Source: Candidatus Dormiibacterota bacterium (GTDB lineage Bacteria > Acidobacteriota > Polarisedimenticolia > Gp22-AA2). From it: a stretch of DNA of 64,000 nucleotides. Position 1 is the stretch's first letter. Each line of letters opens with the position of its first letter. The stretch is from the NCBI GenBank assembly GCA_035635555.1, contig DASQAT010000001.1, positions 1 through 64,000 on the forward strand, given 5' to 3'. Under the pieces are notes generated by a model. The model searched no databases, was not told where the DNA came from, and saw nothing but the letters and a program-made list of their open reading frames with translations. Positions 19,921 through 36,283 of this stretch are shown one piece after another. Made by a program: the position numbers and the translations under genes.

Positions 19921-22682
19921 ATCGCGCCGTTCGCCTTTCGATCCTCGCCCTGGCCCTCGCCTGCGCCGCCGCGGCGGCGCGAACCGCGGGCCCCTCCGAC
20001 CCGGACACCCCCGAGCCGGGCTCGGTGGAGGGGATCGCCCGCTTCACGACGGAGCCGCGCTTCCTGAGCCCGTGGGTGGCGTACGTGCCCGCGTCGGACA
20101 CCGTCCCGTCCCCCACGAAGCGGCTCGGCCACCTGGTCGGCGCCCCCGGGGAGCTGACGCACGCCGGGGCGATCCAGGCGTACGTGCGGGCGCTGGCGGC
20201 GGCGTCCCCCCGCGTGCATGTCGAGACGATCGGCCGGACGGAGGAGGGACGCGACATCGTCCTGGTCGCGATCGCGGACGAGGCCGGTATCCGCGATCTG
20301 GCGCGGCTCAAGGGGGCGACGGCCGCCCTCGCCGACCCGCGCCGCACCAGCCCCGAGCAGGCCGAGACGATCATCGCCACGGCGCGGCCGATCTACTACT
20401 TCAACTGCGGCCTGCACGCCGACGAGACCGGCAGCGGCGAGATGTGCATGGAGCTCGCCTACCGGCTCGCCGTCTCGGAGCAGCCGATGATCCGCGGCAT
20501 TCGCGAGCGGGTGCTGGTGCTCATCAACCCGATCGCCGAGCCGGACGGCCGCGACAAGGTCGCCGACTGGTTCTACCGTTACCTCAAGGGAAAGACGGAT
20601 TTCGACGCGCTGCCGCGCATGTCCCCGCCGTACTGGAACCGCTACGTGTACGTGGACATCAACCGCGACGCGCACCAGAAGGCATTCGCGGTGACGCGCG
20701 CCGTGCACGACATGTTCTTCGACTACCACCCGACGGTGGTGCACGACCTGCACGAGTCGATAGCACTGCTGCAGACCTGGAACGGCACCGGCCCGTACAA
20801 CCCGCACCTCGATCCGATCGTCACCAGCCAGTTCATGGAGATGAGCCTGCACGAGGTCACGGCGCTGACGGCGATGGGGATGCCCGGAGTGTGGACCTGG
20901 AACTTCGGCGAGAACTTCGGCCTGCACTATCTCGACTCCGTGGCCATGAACCACAACAGCATCGGGCGAGGCTACGAGACCTTCGGGAACACCACGCCCG
21001 AGACGACGTCACGCAGCATCGCGGGGGGCGGCGGCGAGCAGGAGGACTACCTGAGCGTCGAGTGGTACCGGCCGGTGCCCCCGCCGCAGAGCTTCCGCTG
21101 GTCGATGCGCGACAACGTGAACTACCAGGAGACCGGCGCCCTGACGATCCTCGACTGGAGCGCCCGCCACGCCGAGGAGATGCTGAGGAACTTCTACCGC
21201 ACCGGCTACAACTCCTGGCACAAGGGGGTCGCCGAGAAACCCTGCGCCTTCGTCATCCCCGAGGACCAGGCCGACCGGCTGCGCGTGGCCGCGATGATCA
21301 ACCGTCTCCGGGACCAGCACATCGAGGTGGGCCGCCTGACGTCCGATCTGAGCGTGGCCGAGGGGACCTTCCCGCGGGGGTCGTTCATCGTGAGGCTCGA
21401 CCAGCCGTATCGCAACTACGCGGTCGATCTCCTCGAGCCGCAGCGCTTCCCCGCGGAGGCCGAGAACATCCCGTACGACGACGTGTCCTGGGCCTTCCCC
21501 GTCGGGTTCGGGGTGACGACGGCGCGCATCGACGACGAGCGCGCGCGGACCGCGCCCCTGGAGCCGCTGCGATCCGACGTCGTGCCGGGCGGCCGGGTCG
21601 CCGGCGACGGGACCGTCTTCCTGCTGCGCGACACCGGGCAGGAGGCGCTCCTGGCGGCGCGCGCGCGGCTCGCGTCGTTCAAGGTCGAGATCGCCGAGAA
21701 GGCGTTCCGCAGCGGCGGTCAGGACTACCCGGCCGGCTCGTGGATCGTGCCGCGCCGGGACGGTCTGCGCGCGGCGCTCGACGCCGCGAGCCGCGACCTG
21801 GCGCTCGATTTCCGCGGCGCGCCGGGCCTCCCCGACGTCCCCCGCCACGAGACGACGCTGCCGCGGCTGGGCCTGTGGGTGCCGTGGGCCGACACCGACT
21901 ACATGGGATGGATCAGGCTCACGCTCGATCGCGAGAAGATCCCCTACGCCTACCTGCGCGACGAGGACGTGCGGGCCGGCGGGCTCAAGGACAAAGTCGA
22001 CGTGATCGTCTACGGCCCCTTCTGCCGCCTCGAGCTGCAAGGTCAGATCCACGGTATCGCGCCGACCGCGGGGCCGATGCCGTTCAGCAAGACGCCCGAA
22101 TACCCGAGCCTCGGTCTGCCGGTCTCCTCGGAGGACATCACCGGCGGGCCCGGATACGTCGGGCTGGAGTCGATCCGGCGCTTCGTGGAGGAAGGGGGCA
22201 TCCTCCTGACTCTGGGGAGCGGCTCGGCTCTCGCCCTCGAGGGGGGTCTCGTCCGCGGCGTGCGGCGCGCCCCGGAGGGAAGAGTGTTCACCCCGGGGAG
22301 CGAGCTGCGCCTCAGTTTCGACCGGCCCGATCACCCGATCTCATACGGCTACGGCGGCGAGACCACGGTCTTCCGCAACGACGAGCACGTCTACAACCTG
22401 CCGCTGCGCTGGGACACCATGGCCTACTGCACGTCCTGCCTGGAGGGGCCGGTCGACCGGCGCCCGGTGGTCGCGACCTGGGGGGGCGCCGGCCCGATGG
22501 TCGTCAGCGGCGGCATGCGCGGCGAGTCCGATCTGAAGGGACGACCCGCGGTGCTCGACCTGCCGATCGGCCGCGGTCACGTCGTCGCCTACAATTTCAG
22601 CCCGATCCACCGCGACATGAACCGCTCGGATTACCGTCTGCTCTGGAACGCCGTCCTCAACTGGAGCGCGTTGCCCCGCTGA
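19917..22682 (+). CDS. M14 family zinc carboxypeptidase, secreted
   Basis: A 921-residue protein with a signal peptide (about 1-22). The M14 domain runs from about 60 to 350. Zinc ligands are His167 and Glu170 in LHADETGSGE, plus a later His in VHDLHES (276 or 279). The stretches NPIAEPDGRDKVADW and VYVDINRDAHQ are typical of large M14 members of environmental bacteria. The long C-terminal half (about 400-921) has mixed alpha/beta composition, including a segment near 735-860 resembling a glutamine-amidotransferase-like fold, and no function I can assign. It is translationally coupled to the S9 peptidase. It ends at the first inverted-repeat element. Confidence 0.88.
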   Translation: MNRAVRLSILALALACAAAAARTAGPSDPDTPEPGSVEGIARFTTEPRFLSPWVAYVPASDTVPSPTKRLGHLVGAPGELTHAGAIQAYVRALAAASPRVHVETIGRTEEGRDIVLVAIADEAGIRDLARLKGATAALADPRRTSPEQAETIIATARPIYYFNCGLHADETGSGEMCMELAYRLAVSEQPMIRGIRERVLVLINPIAEPDGRDKVADWFYRYLKGKTDFDALPRMSPPYWNRYVYVDINRDAHQKAFAVTRAVHDMFFDYHPTVVHDLHESIALLQTWNGTGPYNPHLDPIVTSQFMEMSLHEVTALTAMGMPGVWTWNFGENFGLHYLDSVAMNHNSIGRGYETFGNTTPETTSRSIAGGGGEQEDYLSVEWYRPVPPPQSFRWSMRDNVNYQETGALTILDWSARHAEEMLRNFYRTGYNSWHKGVAEKPCAFVIPEDQADRLRVAAMINRLRDQHIEVGRLTSDLSVAEGTFPRGSFIVRLDQPYRNYAVDLLEPQRFPAEAENIPYDDVSWAFPVGFGVTTARIDDERARTAPLEPLRSDVVPGGRVAGDGTVFLLRDTGQEALLAARARLASFKVEIAEKAFRSGGQDYPAGSWIVPRRDGLRAALDAASRDLALDFRGAPGLPDVPRHETTLPRLGLWVPWADTDYMGWIRLTLDREKIPYAYLRDEDVRAGGLKDKVDVIVYGPFCRLELQGQIHGIAPTAGPMPFSKTPEYPSLGLPVSSEDITGGPGYVGLESIRRFVEEGGILLTLGSGSALALEGGLVRGVRRAPEGRVFTPGSELRLSFDRPDHPISYGYGGETTVFRNDEHVYNLPLRWDTMAYCTSCLEGPVDRRPVVATWGGAGPMVVSGGMRGESDLKGRPAVLDLPIGRGHVVAYNFSPIHRDMNRSDYRLLWNAVLNWSALPR

Positions 22683-22687
22683 GGGGA

Positions 22688-22852
22688 GGCGGGCGGGGGC
22701 AGGCCAGGGGGGCGGGGCACGGGTCCGGCCTCGCTGATCGCGAGGCCTCCCCTCTCTTCGGCCTTCGCCGCCCACCGCGCTGTGAAACGCGCGGCGGGGC
22801 CCCGGCTCAGGCTCTCAGAAGGCCCCGCCCCCCTGGCCTGCCCCCGCCCGCC
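22688..22852. repeat. Foldback element copy 1 (multi-branched hairpin)
   Basis: A 165-base element bounded by perfect 31-base inverted arms (22688-22718 and 22822-22852). The 103-base core holds hairpin GGCCTCGC/GCGAGGCC (22727-22747). It also holds a second stem, 22761-22770 with 22803-22812 (seven pairs around a three-base internal loop). It begins six bases after the M14 gene's stop. The core reappears in opposite orientation in copy 2. Confidence 0.8.
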
Positions 22853-22966
22853 CCGCACCACGGCGAGTGCTTGAAACTAAAAAACAAATGTGTTCTGCCG
22901 TCTTCGAGGACGCGGGACGGCATCGGTGATGACGGGGTCTCGTGGTCGGCGTCGTCTCCGCGGTGC

Positions 22967-23127
22967 GGGGCGGGCCCGCAAGGGGGGCGCGGGGCCTTCT
23001 GAGACCTCGCGACGGGGCCCCGCCGCGCGCTTCACAGCGCGGTGGGCGTCGCGAGGCGAAGAGAGGGGAGGCCTCGCGAACAGCGAGGCCGGACCCGTGC
23101 CCCGCGCCCCCCTTGCGGGTCCGCCCC
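22967..23127. repeat. Foldback element copy 2, inverted core
   Basis: About 160 bases, with inverted arms of about 28 bases and one mismatch (22967-22995 with 23099-23127). The 103-base core (22996-23098) is the reverse complement of the copy 1 core with scattered changes. Hairpin GGCCTCGC/GCGAGGCC recurs at 23070-23090. The second stem is a perfect ten-base pair, 23005-23014 with 23047-23056. The arm sequence differs from copy 1 yet is still self-complementary. Confidence 0.75.
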
Positions 23128-23135
23128 CGGCGGCC

Positions 23136-26100
23136 TCAGCGCGTGGCCGTAGCCTCCGGGACGACGATGTCGCCGAGGTTCAGCTCGCGCCCCTTCCGCC
23201 CGAGCGCCGCGAGGTCGCCTGCGACCAGCGCCTTCCATTCGGCCTCCAGGCCGTCCAGCTCGCGCACCTGGTCGGTGAAGACGTCGCGCTCTCCCTTCGT
23301 CGGCGCGCCCGTGCCGTCGACGGCGAAGCTGAGCAGCGGGCTCAGGCGCGCGTACAGTCTCGCGCCCTTCGCCAGGATGTCGTACTCCACCTCGGCCTTC
23401 GGCTGGTGGATCTTCTCCTCGAGGGCGTCGCACTTCGACACCAGGTCCTTGGCGGCCTTCGTCCAGTCCGCGGCGCGCGCGCTCCCCTCCAGGGCCTCGC
23501 CGCGCAGCGCCACCTGCTCGCGCACGGAACGGATCTGCGCGACCAGCAGCGCAAGTCTCGTGACCTGCGCCTGGACCTTCTTCGCGAAGGCCACCTGCTC
23601 GTCGATGTCGGGCTTGGGAACGCTGAGCCGGGGATCGTTGCGCACCTCGAGCGGGGCGGTGACCGTCTTCCCGTCGACGGTGAGCCGCACGGTGTAGGTC
23701 CCCGGAACGGCGCGCGGGGCGGCTTTCGGGTTCCCCTCGGTCTTCGCCTTCTTGATCACCGTGGCGCTGTCGTACTCGAGGTTCCACACGGCGCGCTGCA
23801 CGCCGGCGTCGGTCGACAGGGCCGCCTTCTCCGGGGGATGGCCGGGACCGTCGGGGTCGTCCTCCTCGAAATCGGGCGGTTCCTTCTTGCTCGACAGCTT
23901 GCGCACGACGGCGCCGCCCGCGTCGACGATCTCCATCGTGACCTCCCCGTCGATCTTCTTCTTGAGGAAGTAGCTGATTGCGGCGCCGTGCGGGGGGTTC
24001 TCGCCGGGCCCCTCGCCGTGGAACGACGAGCGGTACTCCCAGCGGACCGCGGGCCGCGGCGGGAAGAGGTGCACGGCGCTTCCCGCGATCTGGCTGGACC
24101 ATTCGCGGATCGGCGTCAGGTCGTCGAGAATCCACATCGACCTGCCGTGCGTCGCGAGGACGAGATCGTCCTCCTTGACGACGAGATCGTGCACCGCGAC
24201 CGTCGGCAGGTTCAGGCCGAGGACCTGCCAGGTGGCCCCGTCGTCCCGCGAGAACGAGACGCCCCTCTCCGTGCCGACGTACAGGAGCCCCTTGCGCTTC
24301 GGGTCCTCGCGCACCGCGTGCAGGTAGACGTCCTGAGGGAGCTTCGCCGCCAGGCTCTTCCAGGTCCTGCCGTAGTCGGTCGTCTTCCAGATGTACGGAT
24401 GCGTGTCGTCCATCCGGTGCGCATCCACCGTGACGTAGGCGGTGGCGGCGTCGAAGGGGGACGGCTCGATGGAGCTCACCGTGCCCCAATCCGGAATCCC
24501 TTTGATGTTCGCCGTCAGGTTCGTCCAGTCGACGCCGCCGTTGCGGGTGACGTGCACCAGGCCGTCGTCGCTGCCGACCCAGATGAGCCCCTTCTCCTTC
24601 TGCGACTCGGCGACCGCGAAGATCGTGTCGTACCACTCGACCCCCGTGTTGTCCCCGGTGATCGGCCCGCCCGACCACTTCTGCTTCGTCTTGTCGTTGC
24701 GCGTCAGGTCGGGGCTGATGGCCTTCCAGGTCTGGCCTCCGTCCTCCGTCCGGAACAGCACGTTGGCGGCGTGGTAGACGACCTTCGAATCGTGCGGCGA
24801 GACGTGGATGGGGGCGGTCCACTGGAAGCGATAGCGATTGTCCTCGGCGCCGTGGCCCGACCAGTTCTCGGGATAGGCCGAGACGTTGCGCGCCGTGCCG
24901 GTGCGGTGGTCGTAGCGCGTGATGATGCCGAAGTACTCCCCCGCCCAAACGACGTTCGGATCGGACGGATCGGGCGCCGTGAACCCGGCCTCACCGCCGC
25001 CGACGTCGTAGCAATCGGCGTTGGCGATGCCGTCCGACGACAGGCTGTCGCTCGGACAGGAGGCGGTTCCGAGGTCCTGCATCGCCCCCGACACGCGGTA
25101 CGGCACGGAGGTGTCCGCGGCCACGTGGTAGAACTGCCCGAGAGGCAGGGCGGGCGCCGTCCAGGTCTCCCCGCGGTCCCAGGACAGGTCCACGCCGCCG
25201 TCGTTCCCGCCGATGATCCGCTTGGGGTCCTTCGGATCGATCCAGAGGTCGTGGTGGTCGCCATGGTGCGCCCCCTTCACCTTCTTGATCGTCTTGCCGC
25301 CGTCGAGCGTGCGGAGCATCGGCACCTGCGGGAACCAGACCACGTCCGCGTTCGCGGGATCGACGGTGAGCGTCGTGTAGTACCAGGCGCGCTGCCTCAG
25401 GGCGTGGTGCCCGCTCACGAGGTCCCAGGACCCGCCGCCGTCGTCGGAGCGGAACAGCCCCCCCTTCTCCGCCTCGATCAAGGCGTACACGCGGCGACCG
25501 TCGGAGGGGGCGACCGCGCAGCCGACCTTCCCCCAGATCCCTTCCGGCAGGCCGTGCCCGGTGAGCTGCTTCCAGCTGTCGCCGCCGTCGCGCGACACGT
25601 ACAGACCGCTGCCCGGGCCGCCGCTGGTCATCTGCCACGGGCGCCGGCGCGCCTGCCACAGGCCGGCGAACAGGACGTTCGGGTTCGAGGGGTCGAGACA
25701 GACGCTCGAGGCCCCCGTGTCCGCGTCCTTCTTGAGCACCTGCTGCCAGGTCTTTCCTCCGTCCCGAGTGCGGTACACGCCCCGCTCGGGATTGGGACCG
25801 AAGGCGTGGCCAAGGACCGCCGCGAAGGCGACGTCCGGGTCCTGCGGGTGGACGACCATCGTGCCGATCTGCCCCTCCTGTTTCCAGACGTGCGACCAGG
25901 TCTTCCCCCCGTCGGTCGACTTGTAGATGCCGTGTCCTGCGGCGACGTTGCCGCGGATGTTCGCCTCCCCCGCGCCGACATAAAGGACGGCGGGGTTCGA
26001 GGCCGCCACGGCGATCGAGCCGATGGAGGCGTCGTCCTGGTCGTCGAAGACCGACTTCCACTCGAGTCCGCCGTCGTCCGACTTCCAGACTCCTCCCGAG

Positions 26101-34898: not shown

Positions 34899-36137
34899 CT
34901 AGGAAGCGTCCGCGTCGAACCGTCTGCGCACCCGGATCCCGTACTCTCCGATCCCGCGGTAGAACGTCGAGCGCTCCTCCGGCCCGAGTGTTTCCGGCAG
35001 GACCACGCCGGTCCGGCCGATCTGCCCGCGCAGCAGCATCAGCGCGAGGGTCGCCGCGGGCACGGAGGTGACGAGCGACACGTCGCTCGTGCCCCGCACC
35101 AGAGCACTCGCGGTCCGGAGATCCGGCGACTCCGACCACAGCGTGACGCGCATCCGGCGGCCGTCCTTCCGGCCGCTCACCTCGCACACCACCATCGATT
35201 GGCTGTTCAGCCGGCCGCCCTCGACCAGATCCAGAAGTCTCCGAGGGGCGATCGTCCTGGGGAGCTTCTTCATCAGGACGTCGCGGGAACTCACGCGGAT
35301 CCCGCCGACCGCCACCGGCTCCTCGTCGAGCAGACCGAGCCCCTGGACCAGAAGCCGCCAGGCATCGATATCGGGCTCGCCGATCTTGTAGTCGCAGAAG
35401 CGCACGGGCTTTCCGACAAACAGCGGCAGGGTCACTGGCTCCTCGTGGGCGTGCAGATACACCTTGCCGCGGCGTCCGATCGGCGGCGGGAAGTCGTACA
35501 TCTCCTCGCCGCTGAAGATGGGCACCCTCTTCGGCGTTCCGTCCTCCCAGATCAGCGGCTCGGTCGCGCAGTCGAGCAGGAAGACCGGCAGCGACCAGAG
35601 CGCCACGAACACGTCGCACGTCGTGACGGAGTAGTCCCGGATGCGGATGGCGTCGACATCGTCGAGACGGTCCGCCCCCTCCCGCGCCATGACATTCGTC
35701 AGCCCCGGCGCGCTCCCGCCGTTGACGAGGGCGGTCCTGCCGGACGCCTGCCATTCCTCCGCATGCTCGAGCTGCTCGATCGGCAGGCCCCGCCGCTCAT
35801 AGAAGCGGGTCGAGGACAGGTCGAGATAGTGACAACCGGCCCGCAGGGCGGCCAGCATGACGCGCGGGATGAATTCCGGCAGGGCGGTGTTGACGACGAG
35901 GTCGAAGTCTCCCGACTTCAGGAAGAGGATCGTTCCCTCGAGGTCGCCCGCGTCGACCCGCCCCGTCCGAATCTTGGCGCTGCCGAGGTTGGCGGCCGTT
36001 TCTGCCGCCCTGTCCGGGTCGATGTCGGCGAGGACGAGCGTGCCGACGTCGTCCGCCCTCGACAGGACGTCCGCGACGACGTTCCCCTGCGCCCCCGCGC
36101 CGAGGACGAGGACGCGCCGGGTCTGTCCCTGCCGCAT
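34899..36137 (-). CDS. Saccharopine dehydrogenase-like NAD(P) oxidoreductase
   Basis: A 412-residue protein with an N-terminal Rossmann domain (RVLVLGAGAQGNVVADVLSR, then LVLADIDPDRA). The central and C-terminal domains have the saccharopine dehydrogenase layout (YLDLSSTRFYERR, NGGSAPGLTNVMAREGAD). Members handle lysine breakdown or carboxynorspermidine metabolism, or are uncharacterised dehydrogenases. Its position beside an aminotransferase and an amine oxidoreductase fits amino-acid catabolism. The ATG is at 36135-36137. Its 5' side faces the GGDEF/EAL gene across a 146-base divergent gap. Confidence 0.8.
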   Translation of the reverse strand: MRQGQTRRVLVLGAGAQGNVVADVLSRADDVGTLVLADIDPDRAAETAANLGSAKIRTGRVDAGDLEGTILFLKSGDFDLVVNTALPEFIPRVMLAALRAGCHYLDLSSTRFYERRGLPIEQLEHAEEWQASGRTALVNGGSAPGLTNVMAREGADRLDDVDAIRIRDYSVTTCDVFVALWSLPVFLLDCATEPLIWEDGTPKRVPIFSGEEMYDFPPPIGRRGKVYLHAHEEPVTLPLFVGKPVRFCDYKIGEPDIDAWRLLVQGLGLLDEEPVAVGGIRVSSRDVLMKKLPRTIAPRRLLDLVEGGRLNSQSMVVCEVSGRKDGRRMRVTLWSESPDLRTASALVRGTSDVSLVTSVPAATLALMLLRGQIGRTGVVLPETLGPEERSTFYRGIGEYGIRVRRRFDADAS

Positions 36138-36283
36138 GGAGAGATTCTACATGCGGGCGGCAGGGGGGGGAACCGGGTTACGTTGCTGTACCCGGGCCCC
36201 GGGGACGGTGCGCGCTTGATTCAGCCGGGCCTGAGAATTAAGTTTCCGGGGCAGGGAGGAGACTGGCCGGAAGAACCTCATTC

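What the first reader, a model, noticed from the sequence alone, without database searches (positions are those of the whole stretch)
22688..23127. Pair of foldback elements whose stems covary: a possible undescribed structured element
Two elements of about 165 and 160 bases lie in opposite orientation between convergent genes. Their 103-base cores are clearly homologous. In both, the same core positions pair but with different bases: in copy 1, 22761-22770 with 22803-22812; in copy 2, 23005-23014 with 23047-23056. The outer arms also differ in sequence (31 and 28 bases) but stay self-complementary. A first hairpin, GGCCTCGC/GCGAGGCC, is kept in both. Such compensatory change argues that the multi-branched fold itself is maintained, in RNA or single-stranded DNA. 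Candidates are a MITE/REP-like mobile foldback, a transcription barrier, or a structured RNA.
Basis: seen in the sequence. Interest (0 to 1): 0.75.

Follow-up and report, generated by a model that had tools for sequence, protein, structure and literature searches.

The report
Paired foldback ends of mini-transposons
The two hairpins are the ends of a degenerate, gene-less mini-transposon from a family found only in one group of soil and groundwater Acidobacteria; better-preserved relatives of it insert at a fixed distance, 12 bases upstream of the -35 box of gene promoters, a target choice I found no report of.

Summary
The two elements (22688-22852 +, 22967-23127 -) are homologous, GC-rich, branched foldbacks with compensatory changes. 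They belong to a repeat family ('E') with 93 matches in 7 of 8 genomes of the window's family (Acidobacteriota gp22), 16 in its own genome, and none convincing outside it. Relatives carry clean empty sites, so E inserts. In well-preserved relatives E lies just inside the terminal inverted repeat CTGAG(N)TATCCCCAGT of 129-540 bp gene-less elements bounded by 9-bp target duplications. That is a MITE of IS4/IS10 type: the IS10 end is CTGAGAGATCCCC. A second foldback (F) can form the other end, and ends almost always face inward, as in the window. Pairing is strand-symmetric (A.C as common as G.T), so it is kept at the DNA level, probably by template switching, not as an RNA. No RAYT or matching transposase was found; these are orphans. 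Unexpected: 17 of 60 intact termini lie exactly 12 nt upstream of the -35 hexamer of a sigma70-like promoter (intergenic control 0.07%); 5 of 20 further ends do too. The window copy is degenerate: no promoter and no recognisable 9-bp duplication.

The parts
22688..22852 (+). Foldback unit E, copy 1 (outer arms 22688-22718 and 22822-22852, core 22719-22821)
   Evidence: covariance-model hit 22711-22829, 103 bits
22967..23127 (-). Foldback unit E, copy 2 (outer arms 22967-22995 and 23099-23127, core 22996-23098)
   Evidence: covariance-model hit 22988-23106, 112 bits
22853..22966 (.). Spacer between the two inward-facing units; no ORF assigned; its first and last ~14 nt (GCCCGCCCCGCACC / GGTGCGGGGCGGGC) are an inverted repeat shared by the copies
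   Evidence: (pair I6)
22679..23139 (.). Probable whole composite element: outer ends read CTGAGG... and ...CCTCAG and overlap the stop codons of both neighbouring genes; the rest of the terminal repeat and the 9-bp target duplication are not recognisable here (2 of 9 bases)
   Evidence: sequence compared with the intact ends
22680..22682 (+). Stop codon TGA of the M14 peptidase gene, inside the left terminus
23136..23138 (-). Stop codon TGA of the Sortilin/Vps10-like gene, inside the right terminus

Best explanation
The pair is the two ends of one degenerate, non-autonomous transposon (a MITE) of IS4/IS10 type. Each end is a ~165-nt branched foldback lying just inside a short terminal inverted repeat (intact form CTGAG N TATCCCCAGT). 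The two ends face inward around a spacer with no assigned gene, and an element of this kind is cut and pasted in trans, leaving 9-bp target duplications. SHOWN in relatives: copies, empty sites, terminal repeats, 9-bp duplications, inward pairing, interchangeable ends (E or F), insertion 12 nt upstream of -35 boxes. INFERRED: that the window pair, whose own terminal repeats have decayed, was such an element; that the mover was an IS4-family DDE transposase; that the perfect outer arms are produced and repaired by template switching in the hairpin during DNA replication rather than by selection for an RNA.
For: Copies: 93 matches in 7 of 8 family genomes, essentially none in 52 more distant relatives; an 84,980-species scan hits only Acidobacteria gp22 and NC_groundwater Acidobacteria MAGs. 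Empty sites: orthologous gaps of 7-31, 7-33, 118-132 and 80-90 bp where G000 has 241, 274, 413 and 326 bp with E. Orientation: 16 of 18 adjacent E-E neighbours are + then -, F-F pairs nearly all inward too, E..F likewise. Terminal repeat: 69 hits against 6 of the reversed control pattern. Target duplications: 7-9 of 9 bases match in 11 well-bounded elements, and the excess is largest at length 9. IS10 end CTGAGAGATCCCC confirmed in IS4-family (ISVsa5) records. DNA-level pairing: arms have A.C 74 and G.T 58 of 2135 pairs, against G.T 6 and A.C 0 of 131 in tRNAs from the held loci. Arms unlike inheritance by point mutation: cores 99% identical while arms are 64% identical (shuffled 58%), yet each is 22/22 complementary. 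Orthologous copy L146/L137: the G003 5' arm keeps the family-like CCTGCGCC while the G000 5' arm has a cluster of changes matching its 3' arm.
Against: The window pair itself lacks a recognisable terminal repeat beyond CTGAGG and lacks a 9-bp duplication, and so do most G000 copies; their link to the transposon rests on homology to relatives. No DDE_Tnp_1 transposase was found in six of the eight genomes including G000, and the two found (G004, G006) have no matching ends nearby. MAGs can miss insertion sequences. Selection on a DNA hairpin (for example for transposition) is not separated from template-switch repair.
Confidence: 0.82

Rival explanations
1. A structured RNA (3'-UTR element, terminator or regulatory RNA) whose fold is kept by selection.
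For: Strong, significant covariation; copies beside stop codons in the window and elsewhere.
Against: No Rfam match. A.C mispairs equal or exceed G.T, the reverse of tRNAs from the held loci. 62 of 87 copies with an upstream gene call have that gene reading away, many directly upstream of outward sigma70 promoters, where neighbouring genes would not transcribe them. Orthologous sites lack the element.
Confidence: 0.07
2. A REP/REPIN-like element moved by a Y1 (RAYT) transposase.
For: Inward pairs of palindromes in intergenic DNA resemble BIMEs/REPINs.
Against: No Y1 transposase in 8 genomes while controls ring; 9-bp target duplications and CTGAG... terminal repeats are DDE features.
Confidence: 0.03
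3. A domesticated DNA element, for example a promoter insulator or bidirectional terminator kept by selection at gene borders, that only originated as a transposon.
For: Fixed placement next to promoters and near-perfect arms in G000 copies without intact terminal repeats.
Against: Low positional conservation: only a handful of flanking genes recur between species with E and empty sites are common. Target duplications show that the placement arises at insertion.
Confidence: 0.1

Closest known systems
Tn10/IS10 (IS4 family, DDE transposase)
   Same: Terminal repeat CTGAG.(G/T)ATCCCC (nearly all informative bases); 9-bp target duplication (the IS10 value is my knowledge; 9 bp here)
   Different: No transposase gene inside; ends are 165-nt branched foldbacks; insertion 12 nt upstream of -35 boxes rather than at the IS10 hotspot (NGCTNAGCN, from my knowledge)
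Prokaryotic MITEs (Correia elements, MITEAba12 and others; review PMC10969869)
   Same: Short, gene-less, TIR-bounded, intergenic, target duplications, multi-copy
   Different: Interchangeable foldback ends with rapidly changing yet perfectly paired arms; fixed distance to host promoters, whereas known MITEs are reported to carry promoters themselves
REP/BIME/REPIN palindromes (PMC3733652)
   Same: Inward pairs of palindromic units in intergenic DNA
   Different: Units about five times longer; no RAYT; TIR and 9-bp duplication present
Template-switch hairpin evolution (Monttinen and Loytynoja, PMC8794818)
   Same: Perfect stems and clustered compensatory changes without G-U intermediates
   Different: Described for RNA genes; here in mobile DNA

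Membership tests
MITE (non-autonomous IS derivative) | Terminal inverted repeats at both ends | tested here: met
   Relatives G002, G003, G007; window copies keep only CTGAGG/CCTCAG
MITE (non-autonomous IS derivative) | Target-site duplication of fixed length | tested here: met
   9 bp, 7-9 of 9 bases matching in 11 well-bounded elements of relatives; not met for the window pair (2 of 9)
MITE (non-autonomous IS derivative) | Many copies, absent from orthologous sites | tested here: met
MITE (non-autonomous IS derivative) | No transposase gene inside | tested here: met
   Bounded elements are 82-540 bp
IS4/IS10 group | Terminal sequence CTGAGNNATCCCC and 9-bp duplication | tested here: met
   (in relatives, not in the window copy)
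IS4/IS10 group | DDE_Tnp_1 transposase acting on these ends | tested here: inconclusive
   None in six genomes; two transposases without matching ends in G004 and G006
REP/REPIN | RAYT (Y1) transposase in the genome | tested here: not met
Known structured RNA (Rfam 15) | Match to a covariance model | tested here: not met
   No hit at gathering thresholds; only group II introns in the looser search of ten loci
Selected RNA stem | G-U tolerated, A-C not (on the transcribed strand) | tested here: not met
   (the tRNA control is small: 6 tRNAs)

The most novel reading that the evidence does not exclude
A promoter-guided transposon family: insertion is directed to a fixed position, one end 12 nt upstream of the -35 hexamer (9-bp duplication plus 3 nt), by recognition of the bound sigma70 holoenzyme or of the -35 element, so that elements land beside active genes without breaking them. 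The foldback ends are regenerated by template switching, so the arms differ at each site.
Probability: 0.45. Interest if true: 0.75.

Novelty: new variant of a known kind. Interest (0 to 1): 0.58.

Why it matters
Fixed-distance insertion next to host promoters is known to me for eukaryotic elements beside Pol III genes (for example Ty3, my own knowledge), but I know of no bacterial insertion sequence locked to a single base position relative to the -35 box, and my full-text searches found none (the library is partial). It would show a bacterial transposon using the transcription machinery to find safe sites and is directly testable. The arms also give a clear natural case in which strong covariation does not mean a selected RNA.

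Tried and rejected
Rfam: no match. RAYT/REPIN: no Y1 transposase. Reverse-transcriptase or retron-like origin: the only RT near an E copy belongs to a group II intron inserted into that copy; no RT in G003 or G005, which hold many copies. 3'-UTR/terminator in sense orientation: gene context shows the opposite orientation for most copies. Inverted duplication of the target as the source of unique arms: one good hint (the stop codon inside a perfect 29-bp arm at C31:5390, with native sequence matching its outer part) but relatives are too diverged for a general test. Pre-existing REP-like hairpins as targets: only two stand-alone GGGAGCGG hairpins in the genome. Viral contigs: no exact match to one E variant.

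Full report
OBSERVATION. Copy 1 (22688-22852, +) has perfect 31-nt arms, copy 2 (22967-23127, -) 29-nt arms at 97%; the copies are inverted relative to each other and 89% alike over 127 nt. One detail differs: the named core stem is 10/10 in copy 2 but 8/10 in copy 1 (sequence). They lie between convergent genes for an M14 peptidase and a Sortilin/Vps10-like protein, and the outermost CTGAGG/CCTCAG overlap both stop codons.

A REPEAT FAMILY. A DNA search of the window's genome (4.28 Mb, 99% complete MAG) finds 13 copies; a covariance model built from them finds 16 there and 93 in 7 of 8 genomes of the same family, 39 in one. Fifty-two more distant relatives give only two marginal hits. A scan of 84,980 species finds only Acidobacteria gp22 and groundwater Acidobacteria MAGs. 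Neighbouring copies are almost always + then - (16 of 18), as in the window.

IT INSERTS. For at least seven G000 copies the orthologous gene pair in G001-G004 has no element. Convergent gene ends lie 7-31 bp (C31) or 7-33 bp (C41) apart where G000 has 241 or 274 bp; divergent starts 118-132 and 80-90 bp where G000 has 413 and 326 bp. One copy (C48:49067) is shared at an orthologous site with G003.

WHAT IS INSERTED. The conserved 5' boundary of E is sharp while the 3' side continues into a body. A second foldback, F (model R2), occurs in genus g1 only (the listed matches include low-scoring opposite-strand duplicates) and serves as the other end: E..F and F..F are also inward pairs. The outer ends of E and F carry the same sequence, CTGAG(G/C)TATCCCCAGT. 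That pattern occurs 69 times in these genomes against 6 for the reversed control. Elements bounded by it are 82-540 bp long. In 11 of the well-bounded elements the 9-bp flanks match at 7-9 positions, and a length scan shows its largest excess at 9 (0.41 against 0.32). Two bounded elements do not show it (L139, 4 of 9; L259, 2 of 9). The IS10 outside end begins CTGAGAGATCCCC (verified in IS4-family records), and 9-bp duplications are usual for that group (my knowledge). So these are MITEs of IS4/IS10 type. No partner transposase was found: PF01609 is absent from six genomes, and the two present have no such ends; Y1 transposases are absent.

THE COVARIATION. It is real (alignment fitted to the structure), but its character is that of DNA. 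Double changes number 278 cells, single-sided G-U types only about two dozen; in the arms A.C (74) is as frequent as G.T (58) among 2135 pairs, while 6 tRNAs from the held loci have 6 G.T and no A.C in 131 pairs. Copies with 99%-identical cores have 64%-identical arms (shuffled 58%) that are each perfectly complementary, which point mutation cannot give. In the shared copy, G003 keeps the family-like inner 5' arm while G000 shows a run of changes that copy the opposite arm. Template switching within hairpins is known to do this (PMC8794818). I infer that mechanism; selection on the DNA hairpin is not excluded.

THE UNEXPECTED PART. The 5' flank of E is enriched for sigma70-like promoters reading outward (score 10 or more of 12 in 21%, none in shuffles or in the 3' flank). 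Aligned on intact termini, 17 of 60 have such a promoter with the -35 hexamer starting exactly 12 nt outside; no other offset below 40 has more than one; the intergenic control for that offset is 0.07%. Of 11 elements with a good 9-bp duplication, 9 have exactly one end placed this way at a score of 8 or more. Twenty further termini fetched afterwards as a test gave 5 at 12, two at 13 and one at 14. The G005 copies, whose terminal repeats are worn, agree: -35 at 49-50 nt from the model start, that is 37 + 12. The duplication therefore occupies nt 4-12 upstream of the -35 box. I take this as a property of insertion rather than of later selection, because the position is exact to the base. Whether the transposase reads TTGACA or the bound polymerase is open. 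No such rule was found in the papers searched.

LIMITS. The window pair itself is a worn member: no promoter beside it, no 9-bp duplication, terminal repeat reduced to CTGAGG. Its identity rests on homology to intact relatives. All genomes are MAGs or draft assemblies; gene calls come from a simple codon-usage caller; promoters are consensus matches, not mapped starts.

Noticed in passing
L144 (G000 C15:7000-12500), about 518-2450: A complete group II intron (462-aa IEP, D1-D4 and D5 found by Rfam) is inserted into the foldback copy at C15:9449; the exons on either side (..CCGCGCGG|CACGGGTCC..) together read as an intact E with about 26 bp of perfect arm.
   Followed up: partly
L149 (G000 C41), about 2607-2649: Next to the E insertion lies an inverted, diverged copy (about 43-55 bp) of the end of the neighbouring gene.
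   Followed up: partly
L235 355-387 (G003) and L296 about 1500-1527 (G000 C4:77912): Small stand-alone GGGGAGCGG hairpins resembling E outer arms with the core missing: possible hairpin-mediated deletion scars or pre-insertion sites.
   Followed up: partly
window 36116-36203 (-): A weak third E-like match in the window (20.6 bits, E 0.06), possibly a remnant.
   Followed up: no
L128, L158, L162 (upstream of rplU-rpmA): E copies lie upstream of what look like the ribosomal L21/L27 genes in three genera, a possible recurrent or old insertion.
   Followed up: no
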